Made by a program: the position numbers and the translations under genes
Assembly: GCA_029204225.1 (NCBI GenBank)
Contig: CM055099.1
Coordinates: forward strand, 65,375,852-65,439,851
Reading direction: 5' to 3'
DNA from: Diphasiastrum complanatum
Lineage: Eukaryota; Streptophyta; Lycopodiopsida; Lycopodiales; Lycopodiaceae
DNA: 64,000 nt
Notes under the pieces: model-generated
The model's database searches: none
Told to the model about the DNA's origin: nothing
Seen by the model: only the letters and a program-made list of their open reading frames with translations
Part shown: positions 8,783 through 31,845 of the stretch, piece by piece
How the letters are laid out: each line of letters begins with the position of its first letter
How positions within the stretch are numbered: the stretch's first letter is position 1

Positions 8783-11700
8783 TTAATGAGCCTCCATCTC
8801 ATCTTGCCACAAGAAACCATCAAGCCTTGGAAATCCATGAGTAGGTGAGTACATACATGATGCAAATCTAGCACCACATGACTCCATAAACCAAGTAGTT
8901 TGCACTAGTCCATCTTCAAGATCTACTTGACACAAGAAAATGACCATGAATTCACCAAAAATTGACAATCTCCAAGTATTGGCACCAAGTAGCTCAACAC
9001 TTGAGAACTTAGCCATGGATGAGTGACATAATGAACCTCCATTAGCTTCATTTCCATCAGCAAAACCAGCCAAGAATGCTAGTACAACTCCAACAATAAG
9101 ATATTGCAAGACAATGTAGCTAGTTTGTCCATATCTTGACAATTTGCACACATCCACATGAAATAGCTCAAACATGAGATAGAACAAGTAAAGTAAACTT
9201 GAACAACACTTCCTTGCTGCTCCTTTGACCTTACTTGAGTCTTCAATAAGCTGCAAAAACAGATCCATAACATCTTTGCCAATTACCTCTCCTTTGATGC
9301 TCTTGACTAGCTCCAAATTGCCACCTTTCCTTTTGTGTTGTTGAAGTCCTTTGAGACCAACCTCTTGATCTTTCTCTTGACCATCAAAGTCATTGAGAAA
9401 ACTTTTTTTTCCAGATCCATTACTTGCTTTTCCAGTATGAAAACCATGAGAACCAATATCTACTTGCATAACATCATCTACACAAGAAAATTCTCCAAAA
9501 CATGTGAGTAAAACAAAGTGAGTCGCTTTCACTTGCTTACCTTTCTCTTGATCATCAAAGATATCAAAGATATGAATATCTTCAGACCTGAACCTTTGGA
9601 AATACTCCCTCTCAAACATATGATCAATATCCAACAAGAACTCATCAATGCTTGATCTCGAATTTCCACAAAGGTTAGTGAAAGCAATGTCACCAATGTC
9701 ACCATCATAAATCAAAAGATAGATTCCAAACTTTCCATCCAACATGAAGTAGAGTAGGTGAAGATGAGTATCAAACCTAAGAAATCCAGCCCTCTTGAGT
9801 CCATAACAAACCTCAATAAGCTCACCAATGAGATCTCCCTTGCCTTGAAGAAATTGCCTCTCGATTTGCTCCATGTAGTCTTCTTCAACCAACCTTTTGC
9901 CATCTTGATCATGAGTGATCAATTCATAATCATAGAATCCTTTGAGTTGATGAAGAGATGTGAGATCCATGCCTTGGATCTTCCCAAGAACCAATCTTCC
10001 ATTGCTCTTCCCTTCATAAGACTCCCTCTTAATGATTGCATCATGAGAAGTAGAAACCTCAAAAACATTAGAAGCCATGAAAAAAATGATTAGTACCTTC
10101 AACATAAGGATGATTGAAGTACTCTCTTTTTTCAAACAAGAACTTCTACTCAATGTTTTAGGTAATGAATCATATGATAATGATTCTTCCTCACTATCAT
10201 TCAGAATGACATCATTCAAAGTACATCCTACTTTGAACTCTTCACATACTTCTCTTCTTCTTGACTTGTGACTATCTCCCTCACTAAGTCTCTTGATAGA
10301 ACCATTTGATCTACTCTCTTTATAAAGACATGTGACTCCACTTGCTGGAAAAATGACTTTCTTGGAATCATAACAAAAGAATGTAGAAGAACCACCTCCT
10401 TCATGCATGCACCTAGCAACATCCTTTTCCATATGATCAAAGAAATCATTAACAACAATCTTTTCCAAGGAAGAACCTTCACCTCCATTGATGAAGTTAG
10501 CTCTTTCCTTACCTTTTGCATGCTTGCACTTGCCATGAAGAACCATTGAAACACCATCATTATCCTCAAGACTAGCCAAGTTAGCACAAAGATGAACATC
10601 TCCAAGAAGCATATTAGATCTTGACCTAGATCTAGCATAAGGAAGCTTGTTAGACTTTGCATAAGATCCACCAATCTTATTGATGCTAAAAGGTAACTTT
10701 GGAAAGTTGAGACCAATCTCCTTTTCCATTCCATCCTTGTTAGCCATAACAAAAGCATCAAGCTTGAAAAGTCTACCTTGTCTATTGCCCCTAGCAACCA
10801 AGATTTCTTCCTTTGTAATGAAACAAGCATCACCACCAAACTTTACCATGTATCCTTTCTTTATCATTTGACCAACACTTAGCAAATTCTTTGAAAGTGA
10901 AGGAATGTAAAGAACACCATCAAGTCTTGCTTTCCTATTAGTAGAAAGACAAATAGGATTTGAGCCAATACCTTCGATCACACACTCACCACCATTGGCC
11001 ATGTGAATTGCTTTCTTGGCTCCATCATAAGTGACCAAAGAAGTAAGGAACTCCTTGTGACTAGTCATGTGTGAACTAGCTCCACTATCAATCCACCATG
11101 AATCTTTGTCACCTTCACTTGATATTAAACTTGAAGAACACATCAAAAGATAATCACCACCACCTAGATCCTCATCATTAGTAGTAAAGTTGATTTGCTT
11201 GCTACCTTCATCTCTTTGCTTCTTCAAACATTCATTTGCAAAATGCCCTTTGATTCCACAATAAAAGCATTTCAACTTAGACTTATCTTTCTTTTTGCCA
11301 AAAGAAGAAGTCTCACCTTGATCTTGCCCTTTAGACCACTTGCATTTGCCTTTGCCCTTGAACTTGCCTTTGATGAACATAGCATCCTCTTCATAATGAG
11401 ATGTCGATGTAGATCCACCTCCTCTTGATTGATGCCTATACTCCTCATTCACCAAGATCTCTTGCAAATCCACAATACTTGGCAAAGTCTTTTGAATAGC
11501 AAAACTTTGAACAAGATTAGCATGATCATCCAACAAGCCATTAAGTATAACTTGAACAAGCTCTACCTCCTTAATGCTTTCATCAATACATGCTAACTCA
11601 TCATTGAATGCCTTAACCCTCAAAACAAAAGCATGAGTACTCTCTTCCTTCTTTTGCAAACTTTGAAAGATTTGCCTCCTAAGAGTAAGCACTCTTGATG

Positions 11701-11806
11701 TAGACTTGGATTCATAAAGCTTCTTCAAAGCTTCCCAAGCCTCCAAAGATGATGTGCACTTACCAACTTCCTTGAGAAGTTCATTGGTAACATTCATCTT
11801 GATCAT
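8783..11806 (-). CDS. Element A polyprotein: Gag zinc knuckle, protease motif, unknown region, RT-like patch
   Basis: An uninterrupted 1007-codon ORF from an ATG at 11806. Residues 1-130 are Copia Gag (UBN2-type, LTLRRQIFQSLQKKEEST). A CFYCGIKGHFANEC zinc knuckle lies near residue 180. At about 237 comes WWIDSGASSHM, the Copia aspartic protease active site (DSGA), with the LYIPSLSKNLLSV block after it. The integrase that should follow is absent. Instead residues about 360-660 are Ser/Lys-rich with unfamiliar sequence and a hydrophobic stretch (IILMLKVLIIFFMA, about 570). At about 668 YGLKRAG, and at 695 YLLIYDGDI, resemble the RT motifs YGLKQA and LLIYVDDI, but the catalytic Asp pair is not intact. 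The C-terminus has two more hydrophobic stretches (about 867 and 893-915). The sister copy E shares this arrangement. Function of the unknown part is not known; it may be relic pol drifted beyond recognition. Confidence 0.8.
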   Translation of the reverse strand: MIKMNVTNELLKEVGKCTSSLEAWEALKKLYESKSTSRVLTLRRQIFQSLQKKEESTHAFVLRVKAFNDELACIDESIKEVELVQVILNGLLDDHANLVQSFAIQKTLPSIVDLQEILVNEEYRHQSRGGGSTSTSHYEEDAMFIKGKFKGKGKCKWSKGQDQGETSSFGKKKDKSKLKCFYCGIKGHFANECLKKQRDEGSKQINFTTNDEDLGGGDYLLMCSSSLISSEGDKDSWWIDSGASSHMTSHKEFLTSLVTYDGAKKAIHMANGGECVIEGIGSNPICLSTNRKARLDGVLYIPSLSKNLLSVGQMIKKGYMVKFGGDACFITKEEILVARGNRQGRLFKLDAFVMANKDGMEKEIGLNFPKLPFSINKIGGSYAKSNKLPYARSRSRSNMLLGDVHLCANLASLEDNDGVSMVLHGKCKHAKGKERANFINGGEGSSLEKIVVNDFFDHMEKDVARCMHEGGGSSTFFCYDSKKVIFPASGVTCLYKESRSNGSIKRLSEGDSHKSRRREVCEEFKVGCTLNDVILNDSEEESLSYDSLPKTLSRSSCLKKESTSIILMLKVLIIFFMASNVFEVSTSHDAIIKRESYEGKSNGRLVLGKIQGMDLTSLHQLKGFYDYELITHDQDGKRLVEEDYMEQIERQFLQGKGDLIGELIEVCYGLKRAGFLRFDTHLHLLYFMLDGKFGIYLLIYDGDIGDIAFTNLCGNSRSSIDEFLLDIDHMFEREYFQRFRSEDIHIFDIFDDQEKGKQVKATHFVLLTCFGEFSCVDDVMQVDIGSHGFHTGKASNGSGKKSFLNDFDGQEKDQEVGLKGLQQHKRKGGNLELVKSIKGEVIGKDVMDLFLQLIEDSSKVKGAARKCCSSLLYLFYLMFELFHVDVCKLSRYGQTSYIVLQYLIVGVVLAFLAGFADGNEANGGSLCHSSMAKFSSVELLGANTWRLSIFGEFMVIFLCQVDLEDGLVQTTWFMESCGARFASCMYSPTHGFPRLDGFLWQDEMEAH

Positions 11807-11984
11807 GTGTAGAGCTATACCTCACTTGATCTTGAGGTGCTTGAGGTCTCTCCTCCACACCTTCAACAATCTCCATCAACTCATTCATCTCCAATAAGGA
11901 CTCCATCCTCACCTTCCAAGTAGAATAGTTGATTGAGGTAAGCCTATCATTGCTCTCCAACATAAATCCACCACTTGTAGCCAT
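11781..11984 (-). CDS. Element A gag N-terminus (frameshifted from main ORF)
   Basis: ATG at 11984 starts MATSGGFMLESNDR, followed by INYSTWKVRMESLLEM, the usual beginning of Copia Gag. The frame runs off into the wrong register and stops at 11781, overlapping the main ORF by 26 bp. Comparison with element E (23842-23890) shows that A has lost 17 nt (E has DKRAKKAL here), so this is a deletion and not evidence for programmed frameshifting. The internal ATG at 11806 may still allow the long ORF to be translated. Confidence 0.75.
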   Translation of the reverse strand: MATSGGFMLESNDRLTSINYSTWKVRMESLLEMNELMEIVEGVEERPQAPQDQVRYSSTHDQDECYQ

Positions 11985-12572
11985 GTTGAAGTGACCTGAT
12001 CTTCTTCTTTCAACCTGTTCCAATGCACAAAGCACTCTCTTGAATGTCAACAAATGAACTCAAGAAGAAATCACAAAGATATGGAACCTCTCAAATCTAT
12101 TCTAGCACTTCTAACTAGAAAATCAACACATAGAATAGTGAAATCTTGATCAACCTATGATCTATCCTCAATCTAATGATTCTTGCCACTTCCTAAGATT
12201 GAAATACACTCAAATGAAGTTCAGTAACCTCACAAACTAGAGATCCAATCAAAATTAGGGTTTTGACAAAATAACAAAAAATTGAATATCTTAAATTCTA
12301 CATGCAATTTCTAAAAACTTGGTATATCTTCTTGTAGACTCCAATGAGACCTTCCTAATGCACCAAATATCATCTAAATCCAGTAAACCAAGTGTGAAAT
12401 CGGAATTGATCAAGTATATAACCCTATATTGAGTTTTGACCTACAAAAGATCAATTCTACACATGCAAAAATGCTGATTTTTGAGTAGAGATCAATCTAG
12501 CATGCTCTAGCATTGCTAACTCCTCCAAATCCTTGCTAAAGATGGCTGATCCTTTCATAACCTGAAACACAA

Positions 12573-12586
12573 GAGATCTGATACCA
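12573..12586 (-). promoter_or_regulatory. Element A primer binding site (tRNA-iMet type)
   Basis: The minus strand reads TGGTATCAGATCTC directly after the 5' LTR terminus TTCACA, with no spacer. This matches the usual plant Copia initiator-methionine primer site TGGTATCAGAGC at its first ten bases, fixing both the LTR boundary and element orientation. Confidence 0.85.
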
Positions 12587-13240
12587 TGTGAAGGATTTCA
12601 GATCATTCAAGATCCAATCCAAGTCCTAAATCTTTGGTTACAATAAGGAGCAAACCAACAATCCTGCCAATGTAGAAAAATCAGCATCTACATACAAAAT
12701 GAGATGCAAACTCTAAGAGATATTGATCAAACATGAACCAAAACATAAAATATGTTTGTTTTCCGTACAATTACAGTACCATACTATATTTCACACGTGT
12801 GAAACCGAAAATAGCAATAAATGATCATTTTTCACACAAGATTGCAAGATAACACCAAGATAGTGCACCAATGAGTAGTAGAACCCAAAGAGAACCATGT
12901 ATAATGATGAAATGAGAGATAGAAGAGAGAAGATGTGTCTCTCCACGAGTTACATACTTTTATAGAGTTTCCAAACCCTATTTGGCCACTTGGCTTTCCC
13001 TCCAAAATGTAAACCCTACTATTTTTGGGTCTAGATTCAATGTACCCAAAGTTCAAATTTGAATCTCTCTCAAACTTGACTACCAAATTTCCCACACTTT
13101 CCAAAAGTGTTTATTGAATGTATTTTAAACTAATATAACTTCAAAAATTTTATCTTTAAGCCTAAAATGAGTTTTGGCCTCTTATTGACAATTTACCAAA
13201 ATGTGACTAAACTAGACTAAACTAGTTGAAATCTCTCACA
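12587..13240 (-). repeat. Element A 5' LTR
   Basis: 654-bp LTR. On the minus strand it begins TGTGAGAGATTTCAACTAG and ends CCTTCACA. It contains the palindrome-like CACACGTGTG that recurs in the LTRs of E. It is flanked outside by CATGT. Confidence 0.9.
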
Positions 13241-13245
13241 CATGT

Positions 13246-13358
13246 TCTATGTGCTCTTGCCTTAGAATTTTCAAGATAGATTAAAATCAATCAAGTGCAA
13301 GATCTTTGTGCAAACACAAACATCTTAGGAGATCATTCACATTGTTTGTATCAGAGCC
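13246..13358 (+). mobile_element. Element O 5' LTR right part and primer binding site
   Basis: Continuation of the interrupted LTR after element A, ending about 13341 with GATCATTCACA. A 5-bp spacer and TGTATCAGAGCC (13347-13358) follow, one base off the tRNA-iMet primer site TGGTATCAGAGC. This sets element O as a plus-strand Copia element. Confidence 0.7.
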
Positions 13359-14079
13359 TACCTAAGGTTTGCATGCATGCATCAAGTGTGATGAAAATTT
13401 TGGCTTGAAATCTTGATTTTGGGAGTGTAGTTGAATCTCTATAGCTATCAACGGGATTTTGGGATCAAAAGGGGTCTAAATCACATTGATTGGATCCATG
13501 CTGGGTATTGTACAAAATTCACTGCTCATACATGTGTGAGATCAGTCAACTTTGACTTATTGGTGTATCTCCAAGGTTGATCCAAAATTGGTGTATGATA
13601 GCTTAACATAAAGCTAGTGGAGTCTAGTTTGTGTTGCAATTTGTTTCAACTCAACTGGATGTGTCTTGTGAAAGTTATAGCCATTTGAAGTGAGGTAGGT
13701 AGGACACCCAACTTGGTTGGACACACCGAGTTTGACCCATATATAGCTTGTTTCATCCAAAAACTCAAGATAGTGCTTGTCAATCTTGTCTAGGTGGGAT
13801 CTAGGTATGACTTTGAAGCCATAGCCACATAGTTTCATACAAATCAAGTGTATTTGAGTCTTTTGTGGAGTCTTTGAGTGCTTTACATGTGCTTGAGAGA
13901 ATTTGGTTTTGCTTCATCTTTGTATTGGAGCTTGATCTAGATTGGCATAGCTTGTGAGATTGATCTCAAACCTTGTTGCAAGATCCCAAGTTGTAGTTGG
14001 TAGAACACCATTATTGGATCCTTCATTGAGAAAGAAGGAACACTTTTAGATCCATTACAAGATAATTTCTCAAGATAAG
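13359..14079 (+). other. Element O untranslated leader
   Basis: About 720 bp between the primer site and the first gag ATG. No ORF with a known domain is visible. A leader of this length is normal for plant Copia elements. Confidence 0.5.
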
Positions 14080-14483
14080 ATGGCTTCCATGGGATCCTTT
14101 CTCTTGGAAGAGATATTGACCACCTCCAATTACTCTATTTGGAAGGTGAGCATGGAGTCGATTTTGATCCTCCAAGATGTGATGGGTATTGTCCTTGGAC
14201 TTGAGAAGGAGCCTCAATTGCTTCAGGAAGTACAAAGGTACAAGAAAAGAGCAAGAATGACTCTTCACTATATCAAGATGAATGTTTCAAATGAAGTGTC
14301 GAGAGAAATTAGTACTTGCACCTTAACCAAGGAGGCTTCGGACACCCTCAAAGTCATTTATGAGGTCAAGAATACCGAAAGATTTTCATAGAGAGCTTGC
14401 TTGCATAGAAGATCACCTCAACCAAAGTAAATTAGTGCAAGTGATCCTAAATGTATTGAAGGATGAATTTGGCAACCTTGTAC
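14080..14483 (+). pseudogene. Element O gag, truncated and frameshifted
   Basis: ATG at 14080 gives MASMGSFLLEEILTTSNYS, then IWKVSMESILILQDVMGIV, a Copia Gag N-terminus similar to that of element A. An internal deletion joins YEVKNTERF to HRELACIEDHLNQ in another frame. At 14483 the coding sequence stops abruptly at a TGTTGGAC block that starts a different repeat. Nothing downstream of gag remains of O. Confidence 0.8.
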
Positions 14484-14629
14484 ATGTTGGACTATTCTAC
14501 TATCGGAGTGATTCATATCCAAATAATCAATTTTTAATCTTCATCCACTTTTATCTAGTTCTGCAGTTCTATTCGTGTTTTTACACAGTCTGCATAAATA
14601 CTTGGGAATCGCTCTAGAGGTGGCTCCGA
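14484..14629 (+). repeat. LTR-like repeat, partner of 17103-17219
   Basis: Starts TGTTGGACTATTCTACTATC and ends GGTGGCTCCGA. The same sequence with modest divergence begins right after the polypurine tract of element B at 17102. It is therefore a truncated 5' LTR of B, directly fused to the middle of B gag. Confidence 0.7.
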
Positions 14630-15612
14630 GTGTGGAAGATTAGAATGGAATCATTATTGATTCTACATGATGTAATGGACATTGTAAGTGGAGTTGAAGA
14701 AGAACCTACAGCTCCTAATAAAGCTGCAGCATTCAAGAAGAGAAAAAGGATTGCTCTTCATTTCATAAAAATGAATGTCACAAATGAAGTGCTAAGGGAG
14801 ATCAGTAAGTGCACCACTACCAAGGAGGCTTGGGACACTGTTAAAACAATCTATGGAATTAGAAATATTTCTAGATTGCTTACACTTAAAAATCAAATCT
14901 TTCTAAGTTATCAGAGAGTAGATGAGAGTGCTTCAAATTATGTAATGAGAGTTAAAGATCTTCATCAAGAGTTAGCTAGTATTGGTGATGCTCTTAAGAA
15001 CATTGAGCTTGTTGAAGTAGTCCTTAATGGACTAAGAGATGAGTATGACAATATTGTGCAGACTTATGCTGCCAGGGAGGAGCTTCCATCTTTGGGACTC
15101 TTCAAGGTGTTCTCATTGCTGAAGAAAGCAAGCAAGAGAACAAGATGCTGAGGATCAACAAACTTTCATTAAAGGATGGTGGAGATGACAAAGCACTCTT
15201 CACCAAGGACAAGTCAAGAGGCAAGGGCAAAGGTCAACAACGCTTCAAGAAGGACAAGGTCAAAGAAGGTAGTGAGGATCAATCCTCACAAGCTGCAACA
15301 TCCAGTGGCAAAAAGAAGCTATCAAAGATCAAATGTTTCTTTTGTGGCAAGAAGGGTCACTATGCATCAAATTGTTTCAAGAAGAAGAACCGGTCCAAGC
15401 AAGCTAACCTTGCTAATGAAGAAGAGTGTGAGGGTATTGAGAGTGAAAGAGAAAATTCTTTAATGATGTTTAGTTTTTCATCTTCTCCTTACAAGAATGA
15501 AGAAATCTGGTGGATAGATAGTGGGGCTAGTTCCCATATGTCTAGTTCTAGAAACTCTTTCACAAGTCTCATGCCATATGAAGGTGCAAAAAAGATCAAT
15601 CTATACTGCTAA
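14630..15612 (+). pseudogene. Element B gag-protease
   Basis: Gag begins mid-protein at VWKIRMESLLILHDVM and reads through the UBN2-type region (NEVLREISKCTTTKEAW, LLTLKNQIFLSYQRVDES). A frameshift occurs near 15100. The Lys-rich linker is followed by the zinc knuckle CFFCGKKGHYASNC at about 15340-15380 and the protease active site WWIDSGASSHM at about 15508-15540. The ORF ends at 15612 in a frameshift; related protease C-terminal sequence continues to about 15790 in other frames. The 5' part of gag is missing. Confidence 0.85.
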
Positions 15613-15790
15613 TGATGTAGAGTGTAGAATTGAAGGAATATGCATGCATCATCATCAAAATCCTTTTGTTTGCATGATGTACTTTATGTGCCTAAACTAA
15701 CCAAGAACTTCATTAGTGTAGGATAGTTGTTTGATAGTGGATTGGATGTCAAATTTCATGTTGACAAGTGTGTAATCTCGAGGGAGAGAA

Positions 15791-16471
15791 GTGATTGCTA
15801 GAGGATCTAAAGTTGGAAAGTTGTACAAGCTAGATTCTAGGGAGAGTGCTAACATTTTTTATGTTGCTTATGAGACCAAGGTTCATATTCCAAAGACACT
15901 ATCAAAGGAGCTACAACCCTGTGAAGTTTGTGTTTTGGCAAAATCACATAGAAGACCTTTTCCAAGATCCAACATCAAGACTCAACAACCATTTGAACTC
16001 GTGCACTCTAATGTTCATTTCTCCTCTACCAAGAGCAAAAGAGGAGCAAACTGTTTTGTCTCTTTCATAGATGATTACACAAGATATTCTTGGATCTATA
16101 TGTTATCTTCTAAAGCTATGGTTTATGATGTCTTCCTTACTTTCAAATCTTATGTAGAAAAGAAGTTTTCTTTCAAGATAAAAGCTTTGAGAAGTGATAG
16201 TGGAGGTGAATATACCTCTAATAAGTTTAAAGACTATTGTGAACAAGAGGGAATACATAGAAAAAAAATTTGTTCTTATACTCCTCAGCAAAATGGAGTT
16301 GCTAAAAGAAAAAATAGAACATTATGTGAATGTGCAAAAGCCATTAGGCTAGAAGCATTTCTATCTAAAGAATTTTGGGGAGAAGCAGTTGCATGTGCAA
16401 ATTATCTTTGTAATAGGCTTCCTAATCTTGCTATAGAAGGAAGAACACCATTTGAGATGTTGCAAAATCTT
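15791..16471 (+). pseudogene. Element B integrase
   Basis: Copia integrase with the zinc-binding half-site CEVCVLAKSHRRPFP and the core catalytic triad in recognisable blocks. These are HSNVHF (first position changed from Asp to Asn), LRSDSGGEYTS (second Asp) and PQQNGVAKRKNRT (Glu replaced by Lys). FWGEAVACANYLCNRLP and GRTPFEM follow. The loss of two catalytic residues shows that the enzyme is inactive. The frame is open for 235 codons but the last ten are out of register after a deletion at about 16467-16472. Confidence 0.85.
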
Positions 16472-17101
16472 GTGATACACCTATGGAGTCCCATGTAAAG
16501 CAAACTATAAGAGGTAATGAAAGATCTTTCAAGGACATTACTATCTATAGAAAGCTGGTTAGGTCACTTATCTATCTAACCATCACAAGACCAGATCTAA
16601 GCTATTGTGTTGGTAGATTGAGTCAATTTATGCAAGATCATAGTGAGGAGCATTGGAAGCTAGGAAAACGAGTTTTGAGGTATATCATGGGAACTCGAGA
16701 TTTTGGCATATTGTATGTTCACAACTCATAAATCTATCTTCTACTGAATCAAAGTATATCAGAGCCTCTCATGCTACAAAGGAAGCAGTATGGTTAAGAA
16801 ACTTACTTTCAGATGTTAGTCTGAAACAATGTGCTTTGACAATTTTATTTTGTGATAATCAAAGTGCCATTGCCTTGTCAGCCAACCCTAGATTTCATTC
16901 TAGGATAAGCACATTGAACTCAAGTATCACTATGTTAGAAACAAAGTTCTCGACAAAGAGGTAAAGTTGCAGTACTATCGAATGCAAGATATGACTGCGG
17001 ATATTTTCACTAAAGCATTAAGCTTGGATGCACACAAAATTTTGTGGTGCAGAACTAAGTTTGAAGGTCAAAGCATTCATGGAATTAAATTAAGGGGGAG
17101 T
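16472..17101 (+). pseudogene. Element B RNase H region and polypurine tract (RT deleted)
   Basis: Directly after GRTPFEM of integrase the sequence resumes at the end of RT (CDTPMESHVKQ in one frame) and continues into RNase H: RSLIYLTITRPDLSYCVGRLSQFM, STESKYIRASHATKEAVWL, FCDNQSAIALSANP, then ADIFTKALSLD. All of RT, including its catalytic YVDD, is missing. The element ends with the polypurine tract AATTAAGGGGGAG at 17088-17100. The deletion joint lies in a shared GCAAAA, suggesting illegitimate recombination at microhomology. Confidence 0.85.
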
Positions 17102-17102
17102 T

Positions 17103-17862
17103 TTGGATTATTCTACTATCGGAGTGATTCATTCGAATAATAATCGGTCTTTAATCTTCATCCATGTTTCTACACAGTCTACAAGAATACTCAGGAATCG
17201 CTCTACCGGTGGCTCCGACATATCGAACATCATCCGACATATCGACGACGATGATGAAAGTCGAAAAAGTTGGCCATGTCAATGAACAACAGTTATTGTT
17301 CCACTTTATATGAAGCTAAAGAATTGCCCTAATTGCTTTGCAAGTAAATTTTCAGAAAGTCCTAACTGGATGAATGTCAGCGCATTACGACCAACAAGCT
17401 ACTGCGATCTGCAACCTGATTAGTTGTCCTACTGGATACGCGTTAATTTCTTTAGTATAAATAGTTGATCATTAAATACTTACATAACTTAGTTTTTGTC
17501 TTAGCTCAGTTATTGTTATTCGCGCTTACTACTTTATCAACGGAAGTGCATCATACAGAGTTTTTAGCTACTTAGAGATAGCTTAGAGTACGTGGTTTTT
17601 ATCCGCACTTGTTTTGTGCTCTCATCATCTGATTTGTACATGCTACTTATTGAATCGATATAACTTCTTATTGTGTTTAGTATCATGTCAAAATGTATGC
17701 TTCTTTGTAGTTATTTGTAACTGTAAAATCTCTTATTGTTTTGTCTGTTCACTGCAATACATCATTGTTTGGCTACGAAATCACTTTAGTGCTAACAATT
17801 TCAAAGTTGGTTGCTAAAAGATTGAACATGACTTCTGTCATTATATGTTTGTTCAATATTGA
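17103..17862 (+). repeat. Element B 3' LTR (probable)
   Basis: Begins right after the polypurine tract with TTGGATTATTCTACTATCG. It contains a plausible promoter core TATAAATAG at about 17456-17464 and TTAGAGATAGCTTAGAG-like direct repeats. The right end is set by the start of element C integrase sequence near 17865. Only the first 117 bp have a second copy in the window. Confidence 0.6.
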
Positions 17863-17864
17863 TA

Positions 17865-19183: not shown

Positions 19184-19263
19184 TGTGGGAGATTTCAACC
19201 AGTTTAGTCAAGTTTAGTCATATTTGTCAATATTAGGCCAATATGCATTTTAGACTTAGAGAT

Positions 19264-20011
19264 TGTTGGAGGGTTTGCGGATCTCAAGGCCACCCTAACC
19301 CTAGTTAATAAGTGAGAGGGATTTGGCACCTTGCGTTTGTAAGTCCAACCCAATGATCACATAGTTATTTGATTGATTAGTTAAAAGTTAATAAAAGGAC
19401 TTTAGGCCTTTTTGCGGGACTTTTAATGTCGCAGGGCCTAAATGTCAAGTTAGTGAATAAAGTTGGGTTTCCCTCCAATTTTGATGGTTCCCACACTTTT
19501 TTAAATTTGAATAAAAAGAGAAACAAGACTGGACCAATAGGATTCAGAGGCCAGGGTCCTCCTCTCTACTATAAAAAGGGACCAACTCGAGTTGCTCCTC
19601 ATGTTCATTTCCTCATTTCAATAAAGCAGATTGGTTCTCTTTAGAAATGGATTGATGAATGTCCTTGCTCTTCCTTTCTTCTCCTCAATTTCTCATGTTT
19701 TCTTTGGATTTTGCTAATTGTTGGATTTGATCATTATTGGGATTGCTATTTCTTATGCTTTTTGTGAGAGAGAAAGGGAGAAAGAGAAGAGTAAGTTTCT
19801 ATCATTGTTGTGGATTTAGGGTTAATGGAAGTAGGGTTAATGGATGTAGTGTTAATGGATGTTCGTGTTAGATCCTCCATTCATGTTGAAATCTGAACTA
19901 TACTATCGCTCTCATGGGAACGAACCTACGCGTGACAACTAACTCCGTCTCTTTGATGCTAGATTGACTAGATCTTGGATTCAGGTTAGGCAAGGAAAGA
20001 AACCCACTACA
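19264..20011 (+). repeat. Element D 5' LTR
   Basis: 748-bp LTR beginning TGTTGGAGGGTTTGCGG and ending AAACCCACTACA. A promoter-like CTATAAAAAGGG lies near 19569-19580. Confidence 0.92.
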
Positions 20012-20015
20012 ATTT

Positions 20016-20033
20016 TGGCGCCGTTGCCGGGGA
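20016..20033 (+). promoter_or_regulatory. Element D primer binding site (gypsy type)
   Basis: TGGCGCCGTTGCCGGGGA, four bases after the 5' LTR. This sequence is widespread at the 5' LTR junction of plant Ty3/gypsy elements and not of Copia elements. Confidence 0.85.
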
Positions 20034-20205
20034 GCTACGCCAATTTTTCAGTTTGCAACATGTTTGGTTGATGGTTAGCTTGCATTAGGCATCTTGTCGT
20101 GGCATCTAGGGTTAGCTTTGCATTATGGATGTGATTTGTGAGAGTCATGTCCAAAAACGTTCAAAAAATGAGTGGTGACTGTATTTTTTGTTAATTTTTT
20201 GCCTC

Positions 20206-20780
20206 TTTTTATTCAATTTTTGCCCTATTTTTTGTTTCCTATAATTCAATTTGAATAGAGATATTGTAGAGCATTGAAAGGGCTTTCTTTCCATCTAATT
20301 TTTTTTTTTTAATTCCGTTTAGTATTGAGCAAGTTACAAATTTTTGAAATTTGCAACAAAATTCTGTTAACTTGTCAAAAACCAAAAACTTCCAAATTCG
20401 TTTTTTTTTTTGCCCTGTTTGATTCATTTTTTGCCCTACTTTTTATTCTTTGTATTTCAATCTAAATATGAACAGTTGTAGAGCATTATAAGGGCTTTCT
20501 ATCCATATAATTTTTTTTGGATTCCGTTCAGTATTGGGCAAGTTACAAATTTTTGAAGTTGGCAACAAAATTTTGTAAACTTGTCAAAAACCAGAAACTT
20601 TCATATTCATTTTTTTTCTGCCCTGTTTGATTCATTTTTCGCCCAGCTTTCTGTTCTCTATAATTTCATCTAAATAGCTATAGTTGTAGAGCATTGAAAG
20701 GGCTTTCTAGAGATATAATTGTTTTCTCATTTCGTTACATATTGAGGAAGTCAAAAATTTTTGAAAATGTCAAAAAAAAA
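20206..20780. repeat. Element D internal tandem repeat, three units of about 195 bp
   Basis: Three imperfect copies, starting near 20206, 20405 and 20620. Each contains TTTTGCCCT runs, a TTGTAGAGCATT(G/A)(A/T)AAGGGC block and GGGCAAGTTACAAATTTTTG-like sequence. They fill most of the element interior and have no coding content. Confidence 0.8.
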
Positions 20781-20810
20781 AAAATTGCAGTTACCTTGTC
20801 GTTAGCTTCA

Positions 20811-21005
20811 ACAATGTCATTGCTAGCAGGTGCACCTATCTACAAGGATCAACATCAACAAGCATTATCTTGGGATCTTTTTTTGGATGGTGTCGACTAC
20901 CCATTTGTCAATGCACAAGGTTATCATGAATGGCCACCGGACCCATATAAATATTCAAGCATCGAGGTTGGTGTCGTGGGACCGCCACCAATTTTGGTGG
21001 GGGAT
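20811..21005 (+). other. Element D short open frame before the polypurine tract
   Basis: An open frame containing two ATGs encodes MSLLAGAPIYKDQHQQAL and then a Trp/Tyr/Pro-rich stretch (HEWPPDPYKYSSIEV). No family is recognised. It differs in composition from the T-rich tandem repeats beside it, so it may be a relic of a lost gag or captured sequence. It is short and could be chance. Confidence 0.25.
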
Positions 21006-21007
21006 AC

Positions 21008-21752
21008 TGTTGGAGGGTTTGCGGATCCCAAGGCAACCCTAACCCTAGTTAATATGTGAGAGGGATTTGACACCCTGCGTGTGTAAGTCCAACCCAATGA
21101 TCACGTAGTTATTTGATTGATTAGTTAAAAGTTAATAGAAGGACTTTAGGCCTTTTTGCGGGACTTTTAATGTCGAGGGCCTAAATGTTAAGTTAGTGAA
21201 TAAAGTTGGGTTTCCCTCCAATTTTGATGGTTCCCACACTTTTTTAAATTTGAATAAAAAGAGAGGCAAGACTGGACCAATAGGATTCAGAGGCCAGGGT
21301 CCTTCTCTCTACTATAAAAAGAGACCAACTCGAGTTGTTCCTCATGTTCATTTCCTCATTTCAATAAAGCAGATTGGTTCTCTTTAGAAATGGATTGATG
21401 AATGTCCTTGCTCTTCCTTTCTTCTCGTCCATTTCTCATGCTTTCTTTGGATTTTGCTAATTGTTGGATTTGATCATTATTGGGATTGCTATTTCTTATG
21501 CTTTTTGTGAGAGAGAAAGGGAGAGAGAGAAGAGTAAGTTTCTATCATTGTTGTGGATTTAGGGTTAATGGATGTAGTGTTAATGCTTAGTGTTAATGGA
21601 TGTTAATGTTAGATCCTCTATTCATGTTGAAATTTGAACTATACTATGGCTCTCATGGGAACGAACCTACGCATGATAACTAACTCCGTCTCTTTGATGC
21701 TAGATTGACTAGATCTTGGATTCAGGTTAGGCAAGGAATGAAACCCACTACA
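21008..21752 (+). repeat. Element D 3' LTR
   Basis: 745 bp, nearly identical to the 5' LTR apart from scattered substitutions and small indels in the GTTAATGGATGT-repeat zone near 21555-21605. It is followed by the TSD GAGAT. Confidence 0.92.
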
Positions 21753-21982
21753 GAGATAAACTTTTTAAAGTTATTTTAGTCAGAGTTCATTTGAATTACC
21801 ACTTTTGGAAAGTGTGGGACATATATTAGGTCAAATTTGGACACATTCAAAGTTGAATGTTAGATGCATTAAATCTAGTCATATTGATGATAGGGTTTTT
21901 GAACTAGAGGAGGTTTGGAGAGAAACCAAACTCTAAATGAGACATGGATCTACTATATATAGTGTAAATTCATGGGAGAACA

Positions 21983-21984
<2 letters not shown>

Positions 21985-22062
<78 letters not shown>

Positions 22063-22067
22063 CTCTC
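21985..22067. repeat. (CT)n microsatellite in element E 5' LTR
   Basis: About 40 CT dinucleotides with a single CG interruption near 22060. The 3' LTR of E has only a short CTCTCTCTC at the matching place (about 29223), so the tract has expanded since insertion or differed in the parent copy. Confidence 0.95.
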
Positions 22068-23090
22068 ATTTCATGCTTATACATGAGTTCTCTTGGGTTC
22101 ATCTATCCATTGGTGCACTATCTTGATGATATCTTGCAATCTTGTGTGTAGAATGCTCATATTTTGCTATTTTTGGATCCACACGTGGGAGGTACAGTAG
22201 AGTACTGTTGTTGTACGGAAAGCAACTTCATTTTATCATATATTTGATGTTTGATCAAGTTTTTATTGAGTTTGCATCTCTTTCATTGAGTAGATGCTGA
22301 TTTTTCTACATTGGCAATGTTGTATGTTGTGTTGTCTTTCTAACCAAATATCAAGGGACACATTTTGTGTGAAAAGTACAGTACTAAGGACCATAAATGG
22401 ATCTTTGAATGATCTACAAGGTGATTGTATGCTTGTTGAACAATCTATCAGAAACTAGTCATCAGAAAACAAGATCTAGTTTAGCAGCTTGATAGGAAAC
22501 AAGTAGAGACAATCAAAGCATTGATCAAATAGTCTAATCCAACTCCACACGTGTGGAAATAAGGCTGTAGTACGGCCTGTAGACAGTGTTTACAAAGTGC
22601 CAAAGCTGGGTTTCATTGGAAAAATAGAGTAATCACCATACAATGAGAGAAAACTCGAGTTTCTCCTTGAGGCTCCAAAAAGTTTCTATCTTCTCACTAT
22701 GGAGAATGGAAATACATAGTAAAACACACTTCCTTTGCAAAGTTAGGTGAAAATCCAGCATGTAATAAAGAAGTAGACTCCACTTTCTTGCCCTAATGTG
22801 AAAACCCTAGCCTAGATCCAAGAGTCATGCTTGGTAGGTGCATGGTAGGTACAAATCTCATCATAAATCATGGTCTAGATCCTACAAAGTAGGAATCACT
22901 ACCAAATAGACACAACCACTCCTCTTGACTCATGGTAACCTACTTTAGGTGTGTATGTACAAGTGGCACTTTGGCCATTCAAGTAACCAACAAACAATAT
23001 TGACAAAATGTACAATATTCTACATGGCTAGATTTGCCAATGTAGGCAATTTTTCACATTTTAGATCTTAATGATCTGAAATTTTTCACA

Positions 23091-23104
23091 TGGTATCAAA
23101 GCTC
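23091..23104 (+). promoter_or_regulatory. Element E primer binding site
   Basis: TGGTATCAAAGCTC immediately after the LTR terminus TTTTTCACA. It is a one-mismatch version of the tRNA-iMet site used by Copia elements and is at the same position as in element A. Confidence 0.85.
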
Positions 23105-23682
23105 TTGTGTTTCAGGTTATGAAAGGATCAGCCATCTTTAGCAAGGATTTGGAGGAGTTACCAATGCTAGAGCATGCTAGATTGATTTTCACTTAAAAAT
23201 CAGCATTTTTGCATATGTAGATTGGATCTTTTGTAGGTCAAAACTCAATATAGGGTTGTGATATTGAAGAAATTCAATTTCACACATGGCTTACTAGATT
23301 TGGGTGATTTTTGATGAATTAGTAAGGTCTCATTGAAGGCTACAAGATTCGATATCAAGTTTTAGGCAATTGCATGTAGAAAGTGGAAGATTCAATTTTT
23401 TGTGATTTTGTCAAAACCCTCATTTTGATTGGATTTCTATTTTTTGAAGTTGCTGGACTTTAATAGAGTTTGTTTCAATCTTATGAAGTGACAAGATTCA
23501 TTAGATTGTTGGTAGATCATAGGTTGATCAAGATTTTTTCAGTCTATGTGTTGATTTGCTAGTTAAAGTGAGATAATTGAGAGTTTCCATATCTCTCTGT
23601 TTTTTGAATACATTTGTTGTAATTCAAAAGAGTGCTTTGAGCATTGGAATAGGTTGAAAGGAGGAGATTAGGTCACTTTAAC

Positions 23683-24448
23683 ATGGCTACAAGTGGAGGC
23701 TTTATGTTGAAGAGCAATGATAGGCACCTCAATCAACTATTCTACTTGGAAGGTGAGGATGGAGTCTTTATTGGAGATGAATGAGATGATGGAAATTGTT
23801 GCAAGTGTGGAGGAGAGGCCTCAAGCACCTCAAGATCAAGTGAGGTATGACAAGAGAGCAAAAAAAGCTCTACACATAATCAAGATGAATATTACCAATG
23901 AGCTACTGAAGGAGATTAGTAAGAGCAATTCATCTTGATAGGCTTGGGAAGCTTTGAAGAAGCTTTAGAAATCTAAGTCTACATCTAGAGTGTTGACTCT
24001 AAGAATAAAAAATTTTCAAAGTTTTCAAAAGAAGGAAGAGAGTACTCATGCTTTTGTTTTGAGGTATGACAAGAGAGCAAAGAAAGCTCTACACATAATC
24101 AAGATGAATGTTATCAATGATGAGTTAGCATGCATTGATGAGAGCATTAAGGAGGTAGAATTTGTTCAAGTTATACTTAATGGCTTGTTGGATGATCATG
24201 CTAATCTTGTTCAAAGATTTTCTATTCAAAAGACTTTGCCAAGCATTGTGGATTTGAAAGAGATTTTGGTGAATGAGGAGTTTAGGCTTCAAGCAAGAGG
24301 TGGATCTACATCAACATGTCAATACGAAGAGGAGACTATGTTCATCAAAGGCAAGTTCAAGGGCAAAGTGAAAGGCAAGTGGTCAAAGGTTCAAAATCAA
24401 GGTGAGCCTTCCTCTTTTGTTAGTAAGAAAAAAATAGGTCAAAGTTAA
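23683..24448 (+). pseudogene. Element E gag
   Basis: ATG at 23683 (MATSGGFMLKSNDR), then a 2-nt deletion relative to element A puts INYSTWKVRMESLLEMNEM into another frame. Stops occur at about 23936 and 23967. Near 24062-24112 a segment encoding RYDKRAKKALHIIKMNV, the same as at 23842-23892, has replaced residues that in A read VKAF, so part of gag was copied into a second place. The frame then returns to NDELACIDESIKEVE and ends just before the zinc knuckle. Confidence 0.85.
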
Positions 24449-24792
24449 AGTGCTTCTATTGTAGAATCAAAGGGCATTTTGCTAATTAATGTTTGAAGAA
24501 GCAAAGAGATGAAGATAGCAAGCAAATCAACTATACTACTAATGATGAGGATCTAGGTGGTTGTGATTCTCTTTTGATGTGTTTTTCAAGTCCAATATCA
24601 AGTGAAGGTGACAAAAATTCATGGTGGATTGATAGTGGAGCTAGTTCACACATGACTAGTCACAAGGAGTTCTTTACTTCTTTGGTCACTTATGATGGGG
24701 CCAAGAAAGCAATTCACATGTCACTTTCAAAGAATTTGTTAAGTGTTGGTCAAATGATAGAGAAAAGGATACATGATAAAGTTTGGTGGTAA
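24449..24792 (+). pseudogene. Element E zinc knuckle (broken) and protease motif
   Basis: The knuckle reads CFYCRIKGHFAN, then a stop (TAA) where A has the final Glu-Cys. After it the frame reopens with CDSLLMCFSSPISSEGDKN and the protease active site WWIDSGASSHM. A deletion of about 40 codons then removes the region between KKAIHM and SLSKNLLSVGQM that A retains. Confidence 0.8.
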
Positions 24793-25796
24793 TGCTTGTT
24801 TCATTACAAAGGAAAAAAATCTTGGTTGCTAGGGGCAATAGACAAGGTAGACTTTTCAAGCTTGATGCTTTTGTTATGGCTAACAAAAAGGATGGAATGG
24901 AAAAGGAGATTGGTCTCAACTTTCCAAAGTTCCCTTTTAGCATCAATAAGATTGGTGAATCTTATCCAAAGTCTAAGAAGCTTCCTTATGCTAGATCTAG
25001 GTCAAGATCTAATATGCTTCTTGGACATGTTCATCTTTGTGCTAACTTGGCTAGTTATGAGGATAATGAAGGTTCTTCAATGGTACTTCATGGCAAGTGC
25101 AAGCATGCAAAAGGCAAGGAAAGAGCTAACTTCATCAATGGAGGTGGTGAAGGTTCTTCCTTGAAAAAGGTTGTTAATAATGATTTCTTTGATCATATGG
25201 AAAAAGATGTTGCTGGCTGCATGCATGAAGGAGGTGGTTCTTCTACATTTCTTTGTTATGATTCCAAGAAAGTCATTTGTGCAGCAAGTGGAGTCACGTG
25301 TCTTCATAAAGAGAGTAGATCAAATGGTTCTATCATGAGACTTGGTGAGGGAGATAGTCATAAGTCAAGAAGAAGAGAAGTATGTGAAGAGTTCAAAGTA
25401 GGATGTACTTTGAATTATGTCGTTGTGAGTGATAGTGAGAAAGAATCATTATCATATGAGTCATTACCTAAAACATTGAGTCAAAGTTCTTGTTTAAAAA
25501 AAGAGAGTACTTCAATCATCCTTATGTTGAAGGTACTAACCATTTTTTTCATGGCTTCTACTTTTTATGATGCAATCATTAAGAGGGAGCCTTATGAAGG
25601 AAAGAGCAATGGAAGATTGGTTCTTGGGAAGATCCAAGACATGGATCTCACATCTCTTCATCAACTCAAAGGATTTTATGATTGTGAATTGATCACTCAT
25701 GATCAAGATGGCAAAAGGTTGGTTGGAGAAGACTACATGGATCAAATCAAAAGGCAATTTCTTCAAGGAAAGGGAGATCACATTGGTGAGCTTACT
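24783..25796 (+). pseudogene. Element E unexplained coding region, 5' part
   Basis: About 340 codons colinear with residues 340-655 of the element A ORF, at high similarity. It includes YARSRSRSNMLLG, KGKERANFINGG, SHKSRRREVCEEFKVGCTL and a hydrophobic LMLKVLTIFFMAS. Indels relative to A are multiples of three: one extra Lys, one extra Gly, and a 7-residue shortening after FFMAS. I do not recognise the fold. The frame ends where element F was inserted. Confidence 0.75.
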
Positions 25797-25802
25797 TGTT
25801 AT

Positions 25803-26311
25803 GTCCATGACCAGTAAGTAGGATTCAGTATACTCCTAGTCTTGGATACACGATACTCTTGTAAATCAAGTTGTTAGTTATGCCACGTCATACTGGATGT
25901 GACCCGAAATAATATCCTTGTGAGGTCCAGAACACACTAAATGGAGTTTAGACAAGGTATAAGACAGTGTATGCATGTGTAGAGTTATCAATAGCAATTC
26001 TATAAATAGTTGGTCCATGTATAAGACTCTATTCTAGGTGAATCTATGTATAGGGAACTTAGGGCTATGCATGGCTATGTGCCCAGGATGCTTATGGCAC
26101 TACAAAAAGAGGCCAAACTCGCCCTACTCCTCATTGTGATCATGGATTCATTGCCAGGGTTTCACTCTACATTCATGCCTCTTGTTCCTTGGCTTGGGAG
26201 TGAAGCTTCTAGAGTTGATTGGTTGCTTCTACTTGGTTGGGTGGTTGCTCCATTGTGTGTTTTCCATTGTGTATTGTCTTGTATGCAGGATCTTAGAGAG
26301 CTTTCCTTATA
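25803..26311 (+). repeat. Element F 5' LTR
   Basis: Begins near GTCCATGACCAGTAAGTAG. It carries a promoter-like CTATAAATAG at about 26001-26010, and ends CTTTCCTTATA just before the primer site. Confidence 0.8.
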
Positions 26312-26312
26312 G

Positions 26313-26324
26313 TGGTATCAGAGC
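26313..26324 (+). promoter_or_regulatory. Element F primer binding site
   Basis: TGGTATCAGAGC, an exact copy of the usual plant Copia tRNA-iMet primer site. Confidence 0.85.
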
Positions 26325-27437
26325 AAGGCTTACGAAGATTGGAGAACATGGAGAAGGGCTACCTTTCGTCGAAATTTTGGATTAGGCCCATGGGAATTCT
26401 CTTCCAAGGTGGATAGCAAGGGTGGAAGTGGGTGTACTATCCCAGTTTCATTTTGCATGTTGCTAAGATCCATTACTTTTGGGATTCTTTGTGGTTTTAT
26501 GGAGAATTGTCCTTGAAAGCCAATTTGTGATGCTTTTTTGGAGATTTTTCTTGTGTAGATCAAATCTTTGGTAGATCTGAGTTTTCCAGCAAGTGTACTT
26601 CCATTTTAGGGTTCATTAATGATGAAATTAATGATGCATGTCTGTTCTCTCCAATAATTTATGATTCTAGGCTATGTTTTGGTCAAAATTGCTTGGTTTT
26701 TCTTGTTTTTTGACACAAAATAGATAGTAAGAACCAAAATTCAGCAAGATCAGATCAATTTGATGGTTGTAATTCTGTAAATTGGTTTGCATGTATTAGA
26801 GAAAGAGTTGTATGTCATGAATTTTCATTTTATGGTGATGAAAAAAACCGGAAAAATAGCCAAATATCATCATTTTTGCTTGTTTTTTCATAAAGTTGGA
26901 TAGTAGGTGGTTGTAAAACACCATGTAGAGCTTGTAAAGAGGTGGACCAAAGTCTTTTGAAGCTTTCCCTAAAGTTAGAGCCAAGAATTTCAGCAATTGG
27001 ACTTGTAGGAAATCAAAAAAGTTCAAAAAATGATCATTTTTTGTGATTTTTGGAGGATGAATCTCTCCAAATCCATAAGGAGATCATTCTAGAATTAATT
27101 ACAGCATTATTAGCATTCTTTTTTATCTTCCCAACAAGCTATCAGACCAATGAATTGATGATCGGTGGCTTATGCACCATCTCCATCAAGTTTGAAGCTA
27201 TTTTGACTTCTACAAATCAAGAAATCTTCGTTCTTAGCCTATATTGCACCTTAGGATCAGTATGAATGCTTCATGAAAGTCTAATAGGCTATTTAAGACT
27301 GTTGGTAACATCAATTTTGAGCTTGGAGAGGTGTTTGCATTTTCCTAATTTGTAGTACTGTGCTTGCATGGATTGGCTACATGCTGATTCTCAAAGTGGT
27401 TCTGACATGCATGTGGTATTTACAATCGATTTGAGTG

Positions 27438-27937
27438 GTCCATGACCAGTAAGTAGGATTCAGTATACTCCTAGTCTTGGATACACGGTACTCCAGTAAA
27501 TCAAGTTGTTAGTTATGCCACGTCATACTGGATGTGACCCGAAAGTAACTAATATCCTTGCGAGGCCCAGAACACACTAAATGGAGTTTAGACAAGGTAT
27601 GAGACAGTGTATGCATGTGTAGAGTTATCAATAGCAATTCTATGAATAGTTGGTCCATGCATAGGACTCTATTCTAGGTGAATCTATGTATAGGGAACTT
27701 AGGGCTATGCATGGCTATGTGCCCGGAATGCTCATGGCACTATAAAAAGAGGCCAAACTCGCCCTACTCCTCATTGTGATCATGGATTCATTGACAGGGT
27801 TTCACTCTACATTCATGCCTCTTGTTCCTTGGCTTGGGGGTGAAGCTTCTAGAGTTAATTGGTTGCTTCTACTTGGTTGGGTGGTTGTTCCATTGTGTAT
27901 TGTCTTGTAAGCAGGATCTTAGGGAGCTTCCTTTATA
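27438..27937 (+). repeat. Element F 3' LTR
   Basis: Second copy of the 25803-26311 sequence, running into ATTGAGGTTTG of the host element at its right end. Confidence 0.8.
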
Positions 27938-28449
27938 ATATTGAGGTTTGTTATGGACTCAAGAGGGCTGGATTTATTAGGTTTGATACTCATATTCACC
28001 TACTCTACTTCATGATGGATGGAAAGTTTGGAATCTATCTTTTGATTTATGATGGTGACATTGTTTTCACTAACCTTTGTGGAAATTCAAGATCAAGCAT
28101 TGATGAGATCTTGTTGGATCTAGATCATATGTTTGAGAGGGAGTATTTCCAGGGGGTTGGGTCTGAAGATATTCATATCTTTGATATTCAAGAGAAAGGT
28201 GAGCAAGTGGAAGCGACTCACTTTGCTTTACTCACATGTTTTGGAGAATCTTCTTGTGCAGATAATGTTATGCAAGTGGATATTGGTTCTCATGGTTTTC
28301 ATGCTGTAAATTCAACTAATGGATCTGGAAAAGAGGTCTTAGTCAATGGCTTTGATGGTCAAGTGGAAGATCAAGAGGTTGATCTCAAGGGGCTTCAACA
28401 ACACAAAAGGGAAAGTGGCAATTTTGAGCTAGTCAAGAGCATCAAATGA
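27938..28449 (+). pseudogene. Element E unexplained coding region, 3' part
   Basis: Resumes IEVCYGLKRAGF and IYLLIYDGDI exactly where element A would continue after GEL. It ends with a stop at 28447-28449 after KSIK, where A reads on (KGEVIGKDVMDLF). The YGLKRAG and YLLIYDGDI blocks resemble Copia RT motifs that have lost the catalytic residues. Confidence 0.75.
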
Positions 28450-31840: not shown

Positions 31841-31845
31841 AATTT

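What the first reader, a model, noticed from the sequence alone, without database searches (positions are those of the whole stretch)
8783..28449. Two non-autonomous Copia-derived elements share a long unexplained coding region
Element A (minus, ORF 8783-11806) and element E (plus, 24783-25796 joined to 27938-28449) carry the same protein order. It is Gag, zinc knuckle, DSGA protease motif, then hundreds of residues with no integrase and no usable RT. The unexplained part stays clearly alignable between copies, and its indels there are multiples of three (extra Lys, extra Gly, 7-residue change after FFMAS). That hints at coding constraint in a parent lineage and at a mobile family that spreads with this region as cargo or as a regulatory/Gag-type product. 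Known parallels are TR-GAG and BARE-2 type parasites, but the extra region is not part of those as I know them.
Basis: partly seen in the sequence, partly recalled or inferred. Interest (0 to 1): 0.75.

Follow-up and report, generated by a model that had tools for sequence, protein, structure and literature searches.

The report
Copia parasite with open-framed dead polymerase
A jumping gene, probably of a plant, still makes its own coat protein and protease but has let its integrase and polymerase decay almost beyond recognition, while its reading frame stayed open to the end, which suggests that being translated may matter even when the protein made does not.

Summary
A (7797-13240, minus) and E (19184-29554, plus) are copies of one Copia-type LTR family with Gag, zinc knuckle and protease but no working integrase or RT. 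A 24-mer of the unexplained region occurs 3,148 times in the window's genome. The three youngest copies read in full have one 1195-codon frame from the gag ATG to the 3' LTR. Intact autonomous relatives exist (L059, L060). Against them the unexplained region is partly decayed pol of the same lineage: an integrase relic, an RT relic without YVDD, and an IN-RT linker out of order. About 185 and 330 codons match nothing. Protein-level selection is not seen there: shared variants have N/S 3.09, neutral 3.06, while gag-PR is constrained. Yet the frame stayed open over about 0.4 neutral substitutions per site, when about 31 stops are expected. Best reading: a semi-autonomous Gag-protease family mobilised in trans, whose dead pol is kept translatable (perhaps against nonsense-mediated decay), rather than a cargo gene. 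Deep-time evidence for the open frame is strong; recent-time evidence is mixed. New variant of a known kind.

The parts
7797..13240 (-). Element A, whole: non-autonomous Copia-type LTR element
   Evidence: LTR pair 97.4% over 642 nt; target repeats CATGT at 7792-7796 and 13241-13245 and an empty-site paralogue at 31843-32008
12587..13240 (-). A 5' LTR (654 nt, TG...CA); primer-binding site TGGTATCA begins at 12586
7797..8438 (-). A 3' LTR; its first bases and the PPT are lost
   Evidence: compare the intact junction of L025
11807..11984 (-). N-terminal part of gag, out of frame with the rest because of a 17-nt deletion in this copy
8783..11806 (-). A ORF, 1007 aa: most of Gag, zinc knuckle, protease region, open tail
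10850..11098 (-). Protease-region domain Pol_BBD (A residues 237-319)
   Evidence: Pfam PF22936 E 1.6e-22
10490..10729 (-). Integrase N-terminal relic (L025 codons 426-505; converted coordinates)
   Evidence: z 5.3-8.4 against L060 and L059; 10.4 and 5.8 as one stretch
9938..10489 (-). U1: about 185 codons without a match, open frame (converted coordinates)
9590..9937 (-). RT palm relic; the YVDD of the relatives is gone (L025 codons 690-805; converted coordinates)
   Evidence: z 4.1-4.8 in full windows; 7.6 and 8.2 as one stretch, alignment shown
9455..9562 (-). IN-RT linker relic, out of order behind the RT relic (L025 codons 815-850; converted coordinates)
   Evidence: nt E 1e-8 against L060; z 12.3 against L060 and 4.9 against L059, but z below 1 against L059 in the window scan
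8466..9454 (-). U2: about 330 codons without a convincing match; in A the frame is broken near its end by a 1-nt deletion
19184..29554 (+). Element E: older copy of the family with inserts at about 19264-21752, 22317-23060 and 25795-27938
24804..25802 (+). E cargo, first piece (integrase relic, U1, start of the RT relic)
   Evidence: 85% aa identity to A residues 330-668
27940..28734 (+). E cargo, second piece (RT relic, linker relic, U2)
   Evidence: 67.5% over A residues 664-938; stop after 28449
28917..29554 (+). E 3' LTR

Best explanation
A and E belong to a high-copy, recently active, semi-autonomous Copia family. It descends from an autonomous Copia lineage that is still present in the genome (L059/L060 type). 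It keeps what it needs in cis (LTR ends, primer-binding site, polypurine tract) and encodes its own Gag and protease. It lost integrase and RT by deletion, rearrangement and free amino-acid drift, and must be copied and integrated in trans by autonomous relatives (inferred). The part behind the protease is no longer selected as a protein, but it has stayed one open frame to the 3' LTR in the line that amplified last. The likeliest reason is that the genomic RNA is also the Gag mRNA: a stop behind the protease would leave more than 2 kb of untranslated RNA and expose it to nonsense-mediated decay, whereas an open frame ends in the LTR. Shown: parts, relics, relatives, copy number, neutral N/S, open frame over deep time. 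Inferred: trans-mobilisation, continuing selection on the frame, and NMD as its cause. My odds by step: semi-autonomous Gag-protease family with decayed pol 0.9; frame kept by selection 0.6; NMD the reason 0.3-0.35.
For: Copies: 3,148 matches of a U1 24-mer, 0 in the control. Young copies L005, L008, L025 (LTRs 99.3, 100, 100% identical) have one 1195-codon frame. L060 is an intact-looking autonomous element (domains; LTRs 622/622 identical). Family, L059 and L060 share TGGTATCAGAGC and a 25-nt PPT/LTR-start block; the L059 LTR is 79% identical over 661 columns. Relics. Gag w 0.20-0.27 and protease w 0.14-0.21 against the autonomous elements. Post-protease N/S of shared variants is neutral; stops 5 of 271 against 5.4%. 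Deep time: on the family branch dN 0.59 in the RT relic against 0.11 in gag, gag dS 0.42; neutral drift of 0.4 gives 31 stops on average in 780 codons and none of 400 runs without one. Codon periodicity of codons 416-690 (63 per kb) is like that of L060 integrase (50.5). Indels shared by three or more copies are in frame in 4 of 4, private ones in 5 of 24 (P 0.006).
Against: Shared and private stop fractions behind the protease do not differ (5 of 271, 19 of 617, P 0.37), and private ones are below expectation too (P 0.004), which points to sampling bias because the copies were found by protein searches. The tree-based comparison shows no difference for stops (P 0.70) or N/S (P 0.20). A stop at codon 803 is shared by two sister copies, L009 and L053, and two frameshift indels behind the protease are shared by two rows each: interrupted copies may spread. 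In gag both shared indels are frameshifts. Codons 1001-1195 have a high internal N/S that I cannot explain (P 0.02). Trans-mobilisation and NMD were not tested.
Confidence: 0.5

Rival explanations
1. No selection on the tail at all now: the frame is a leftover of a line in which constraint on some tail protein ended only recently, and the present copies descend from a founder that still had an open frame.
For: Neutral N/S in the burst; no stop difference between internal and terminal branches or between shared and private variants (P 0.37); a stop shared by two sister copies.
Against: The RT relic has drifted at about the neutral rate (branch dN 0.59; 1.4 times gag dS, 0.6 times the relic's own dS) while the founder's 780 codons held no stop; about 31 are expected without selection on the frame. 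Indels in three or more copies are in frame, 4 of 4.
Confidence: 0.2
2. The tail is needed as a polyprotein extension: whatever its sequence, a long Gag-protease-tail product serves as the minor Gag-Pol-like form that feeds the protease into particles.
For: Protease stays constrained (w 0.14-0.21); one frame from gag to the LTR, as in the autonomous elements.
Against: Length is loose: a 58-codon in-frame deletion is carried by 1,012 matches. No direct evidence.
Confidence: 0.15
3. U1 and U2 are an accessory protein or captured host sequence fused behind Gag-protease, like the DUF1 of wheat RLG_Quinta, with selection too weak or too recently relaxed to see.
For: About 185 and 330 codons match no pol part; codon periodicity of codons 500-690 is 53 per kb. 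RLG_Quinta shows that Gag plus an unknown domain occurs elsewhere (PMC11302176, passages).
Against: N/S of shared variants 2.94 in codons 416-690 and 4.81 in 851-1180, neutral about 3.1; no Pfam or PDB match. A donor gene could not be looked for: family copies fill the capped hit lists.
Confidence: 0.12
4. Simply ordinary integrase and RT broken by frameshifts, as in non-autonomous RLC_Angela of wheat.
For: Part of the region is decayed pol of the same lineage.
Against: No stop in 780 codons of the young copies; relics lie in the gag frame and the other two forward frames give no signal (z at most 1.5).
Confidence: 0.03

Closest known systems
RLG_Quinta, partner of autonomous RLG_Cereba (einkorn wheat; PMC11302176, passages read)
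   Same: Non-autonomous element with an ORF for GAG plus a part of unknown function; PBS, LTR termini and PPT shared with an autonomous partner in the same genome; high copy number
   Different: Gypsy, not Copia; no protease is mentioned for it in the passages read; here part of the unknown region is shown to be decayed pol of the partner lineage and to be neutral as protein
RLG_Sabrina_SA, 'semi-autonomous' GAG-Pro element (wheat; PMC9744471, passages read)
   Same: Keeps GAG and protease, lacks RT and integrase, high copy number
   Different: Gypsy; in the passages read the coding part is the GAG-Pro ORF, with no open decayed pol behind it
Non-autonomous RLC_Angela (wheat Copia; PMC9744471, passages read)
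   Same: Copia derivative of similar size that co-exists with autonomous relatives
   Different: Its CDS is degenerate with many frameshifts and stops; here gag-PR is constrained and the frame is open
TR-GAG (for example AT5TE33540; PMC8704663, passages read)
   Same: Gag-coding non-autonomous LTR element mobilised without its own RT or integrase
   Different: Single ORF for GAG only; here also protease and 780 more open codons
BARE-2 (described in PMC9744471, passage)
   Same: Copia parasite of an autonomous sister
   Different: Opposite loss: disrupted GAG, other genes intact

Membership tests
Copia-type LTR retrotransposon | LTRs, PBS and target-site repeats | tested here: met
   Element A; E has no matching 5-nt repeat
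Copia-type LTR retrotransposon | Copia-type Gag and protease region | tested here: met
   PF14223 and PF22936 in A and L025
Copia-type LTR retrotransposon | Integrase ahead of RT, working pol (autonomous element) | tested here: not met
   Relics only in A and L025; met in L060
Semi-autonomous GAG-Pro element | Gag and protease kept under constraint | tested here: met
   w 0.14-0.30 by part; shared N/S 1.79, P 0.009
Semi-autonomous GAG-Pro element | Autonomous partner with shared cis signals in the same genome | tested here: met
   L059 and L060; which of them, or another, is the partner is not settled
Semi-autonomous GAG-Pro element | Actual mobilisation in trans, Gag supplied to both | not testable with these tools
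   Needs experiment
TR-GAG | Gag as the only coding part | tested here: not met
   Protease region and a 780-codon open tail
BARE-2 type | gag disrupted, rest intact | tested here: not met
   gag intact in L005, L008, L025; pol decayed
Element with a functional cargo gene | Extra region under protein-level selection | tested here: not met
   Neutral N/S; 48 N to 12 S between E and the family
Element with a functional cargo gene | Identifiable donor gene | tested here: inconclusive
   None in Pfam or PDB; a genomic donor could not be searched past the family's own copies

The most novel reading that the evidence does not exclude
Frame-only selection: about 780 codons of dead pol are kept as an open frame purely because the RNA must be translated through to its 3' LTR, with no selection on the amino acids. 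This would be a kind of reading frame that is coding yet free in sequence, and it could also explain other 'domains of unknown function' behind Gag in parasitic retroelements.
Probability: 0.35. Interest if true: 0.75.

Novelty: new variant of a known kind. Interest (0 to 1): 0.52.

Why it matters
Parasitic retroelements that keep Gag are known, and at least one published case carries an unexplained domain behind it (RLG_Quinta). Here autonomous relatives sit in the same genome beside thousands of copies, so selection for a protein can be told apart from selection for an open frame, and the idea that RNA surveillance shapes the genomes of retroelement parasites becomes testable.

Tried and rejected
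Match for the cargo in Pfam (best 0.069 and 0.17, a 17-18 residue stretch) or PDB (best E 2.2 and 0.91): none. Relatives in IMG/VR: none for A or for the RT of the window's other Copia element. Pol in wrong frames: z at most 1.5 in two forward frames (11 windows each) and 1.5 in the reversed protein (35 windows). Relics from a different Copia lineage: rejected, z at most 1.2 against the element at 61 kb and -0.9 against the integrase at 55 kb, while L060's RT scores 30.7 against that 61-kb element. Pooled dN/dS against one copy (gag-PR 0.41, 416-690 0.91, 691-815 0.55, 816-1000 0.67, 1001-1195 1.97) was set aside as pseudo-replicated; replace it. Weak nt matches of U2 to pol in other frames (E 0.01-0.09) were not counted as relics. 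Structure prediction could not be run, so neither could fold searches.
Full report
What is there. Element A (7797-13240, minus) has a 654-nt 5' LTR, a TGGTATCA primer-binding site, CATGT repeats on both sides and an empty-site paralogue at 31843-32008. Its ORF 8783-11806 holds most of Gag, a zinc knuckle and the protease region. The true gag start lies upstream (about 11984); a 17-nt deletion cuts it off in this copy, and the 3' LTR has lost its first bases with the PPT. Element E (19184-29554, plus) is an interrupted, apparently older copy whose own LTR pieces are 77-87% alike. A-E identity is uneven: 5' leader 87.8%, gag 88-93%, cargo 1 94.6%, cargo 2 91.9%, LTR 84%, so E may also have exchanged sequence with other copies (inference).

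Genome-wide. A 24-mer from the unexplained region occurs 3,148 times with up to 2 mismatches, against 0 for the reversed control. Protein searches scored 45, 77 and 121 copies; these are capped lists. I read 58 loci from them (L001-L058), including A and E themselves and several near-identical or overlapping ones. An LTR pair was found in 27 of the 28 longer loci (L001-L028), 95-100% identical, 100% in L008 and L025. In L005, L008 and L025 the whole internal region is one frame of 1195 codons, from MATSGG to KLVEEGV, whose stop lies in the first bases of the 3' LTR. These three are close sisters. L023 and L024 also have long frames (1103 and 1137 codons); the other 23 loci of L001-L028 have shorter ones.

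Autonomous relatives. An RT query from the window's other Copia element (14-19 kb) scored 150 RT copies, some in frames of about 1,300 codons. Two were fetched. L060 (1316 codons) shows gag, zinc knuckle, protease region, pre-integrase, integrase core, SH3-like and RVT_2 domains, and its LTRs are 622/622 identical. L059 (1317 codons; not run through Pfam) has LTRs 98.5% identical over 593 nt. Both share a 25-nt PPT/LTR-start block with the family and the PBS TGGTATCAGAGC. L059's LTR and leader are each 79% identical to L025's; L060's LTR matches over 82 nt only. Gag dS among family, L059 and L060 is 0.7-0.9, w 0.20-0.27, so the three lines are about equally far apart. A 24-mer of the autonomous clade's RT occurs 4,370 times.

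What the unexplained region is. Gag-PR aligns to L059/L060 at 76-78% nt, then similarity breaks off. A window scan finds three stretches above shuffled controls in the gag frame: codons 426-505 (integrase N-terminal part, z 5.3-8.4), about 690-805 (RT palm, z 4.1-4.8) and about 815-850 (IN-RT linker, z 6.5-6.7 against L060 but below 1 against L059). In the autonomous elements the linker lies before the RT. Wrong-frame and reversed controls reach z 1.5. Taken whole, the relics score z 4.9-12.3 against this lineage and at most 1.2 against two other Copia elements of the window; the alignment shows YVDD of the relatives replaced in the relic. Codons about 506-689 and 851-1180 match nothing convincing in pol, Pfam or PDB.

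Selection within the family. In 37 distinct copies (21 of 58 loci dropped as near-identical, probable alleles or close sisters; E not among them), variants shared by two or more copies have N/S 1.79 in gag-PR (neutral 3.08, P 0.009) but 3.09 behind it (neutral 3.06). Stops are 0 of 95 in gag-PR and 5 of 271 behind it, against 5.4% expected (P 0.003). Private variants behind it show 19 of 617, also below expectation (P 0.004), which points to sampling bias, since copies were found by protein searches. The shared and private stop fractions do not differ significantly (P 0.37). In the tail (codons 726-1180) of 18 copies found by a query that hardly covers it: private 5 of 144, shared 4 of 162, expected 5.9% (P 0.15 and 0.037). 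Of the four shared, one is no stop in context, one is two different stop codons, one is in two non-sister copies, and one (codon 803) is inherited by two sisters. A tree-based test found no difference behind the protease. Indels behind the protease: after merging the 160- and 164-nt calls into the 174-nt deletion that the finer alignment shows, 4 of 6 shared ones are in frame, 4 of 4 of those in three or more rows, and 5 of 24 private ones (P 0.049 and 0.006; one private event, 422 nt, may be a coverage gap). Of E's own four, two are in frame. In gag both shared indels are frameshifts. The 174-nt (58-codon) deletion has 1,012 matches in the genome.

Deep time. On the family branch, dN is 0.59 in the RT relic and 0.11 in gag; dS is 0.42 in gag and 0.97 in the relic, so the relic drifted at 0.6 to 1.4 times the synonymous rate. 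Drifting L060 pol neutrally by 0.4 substitutions per site gives on average 4.4 stops in the RT stretch (1% of 400 runs with none), 6.7 in three relic stretches and 31 in 780 codons (no run of 400 with none in either). The young copies have no stop there. Random sequence of the same composition would hold about 39-53 stops in 780 codons. So constraint on the amino acids was lost long ago while the frame stayed open: this is the strongest part of the case.

Mechanism. The unspliced RNA of such an element serves as genome and as Gag mRNA (established knowledge). In plants, transcripts with long 3' UTRs behind a premature stop are removed by NMD (PMC6277124, abstract read). A frame running to the LTR would avoid this without a useful protein. 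That is my inference. A required polyprotein extension, an unseen accessory protein, or a mere leftover frame are live rivals.

Known kinds. The nearest published cases that I saw are from wheat: semi-autonomous GAG-Pro RLG_Sabrina_SA and non-autonomous RLC_Angela with a CDS full of stops (PMC9744471, passages), and RLG_Quinta with GAG plus a domain of unknown function (PMC11302176, passages). TR-GAG codes for GAG only (PMC8704663, passages). I saw no report of an open-framed decayed pol behind Gag-protease in the listings; they cover open-licence papers only.

Verdict. The sequence observation is right. The cargo reading is only partly supported: much of the region is dead pol of a Gag-protease parasite. 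What deserves a specialist's attention is that the dead part stayed open.

Noticed in passing
window 19264-21752 and 25795-27938: Two inserts in E, each bounded by direct repeats (about 748 nt at 95.6% and about 510 nt at 92.4%), as if short LTR elements with little coding capacity.
   Followed up: no
window 14080-18950 (+): Decayed Copia element of the same clade (gag about 50% identical to A) with gag, integrase and RT pieces in separate frames; its RT is 82-88% identical to many genomic copies.
   Followed up: partly
L009, L023, L024, L032, L039, L045, L053, L057 near codon 1003: In-frame deletion of 174 nt at a short repeat (CAAG-TTGA), a large subfamily: 1,012 matches to its junction.
   Followed up: yes
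L025 codons 1001-1195: Internal-branch N/S twice the terminal one (w 1.94 against 0.90, P 0.02); unexplained.
   Followed up: partly
E, window 19184-29554: A-E identity is higher in the cargo (94.6%) than in leader, gag or LTRs, and E's own LTRs are as unlike each other as they are unlike A's: possible sequence exchange between copies.
   Followed up: no
window 41634-43466 (-): 611-aa ORF with a weak AAA_lid_RFC1 match (E 2.4e-5, below Pfam's cut-off): perhaps a host gene exon.
   Followed up: no
window 62138-62737 (-): RVT_1 reverse transcriptase piece (E 1.6e-26), LINE-like.
   Followed up: no
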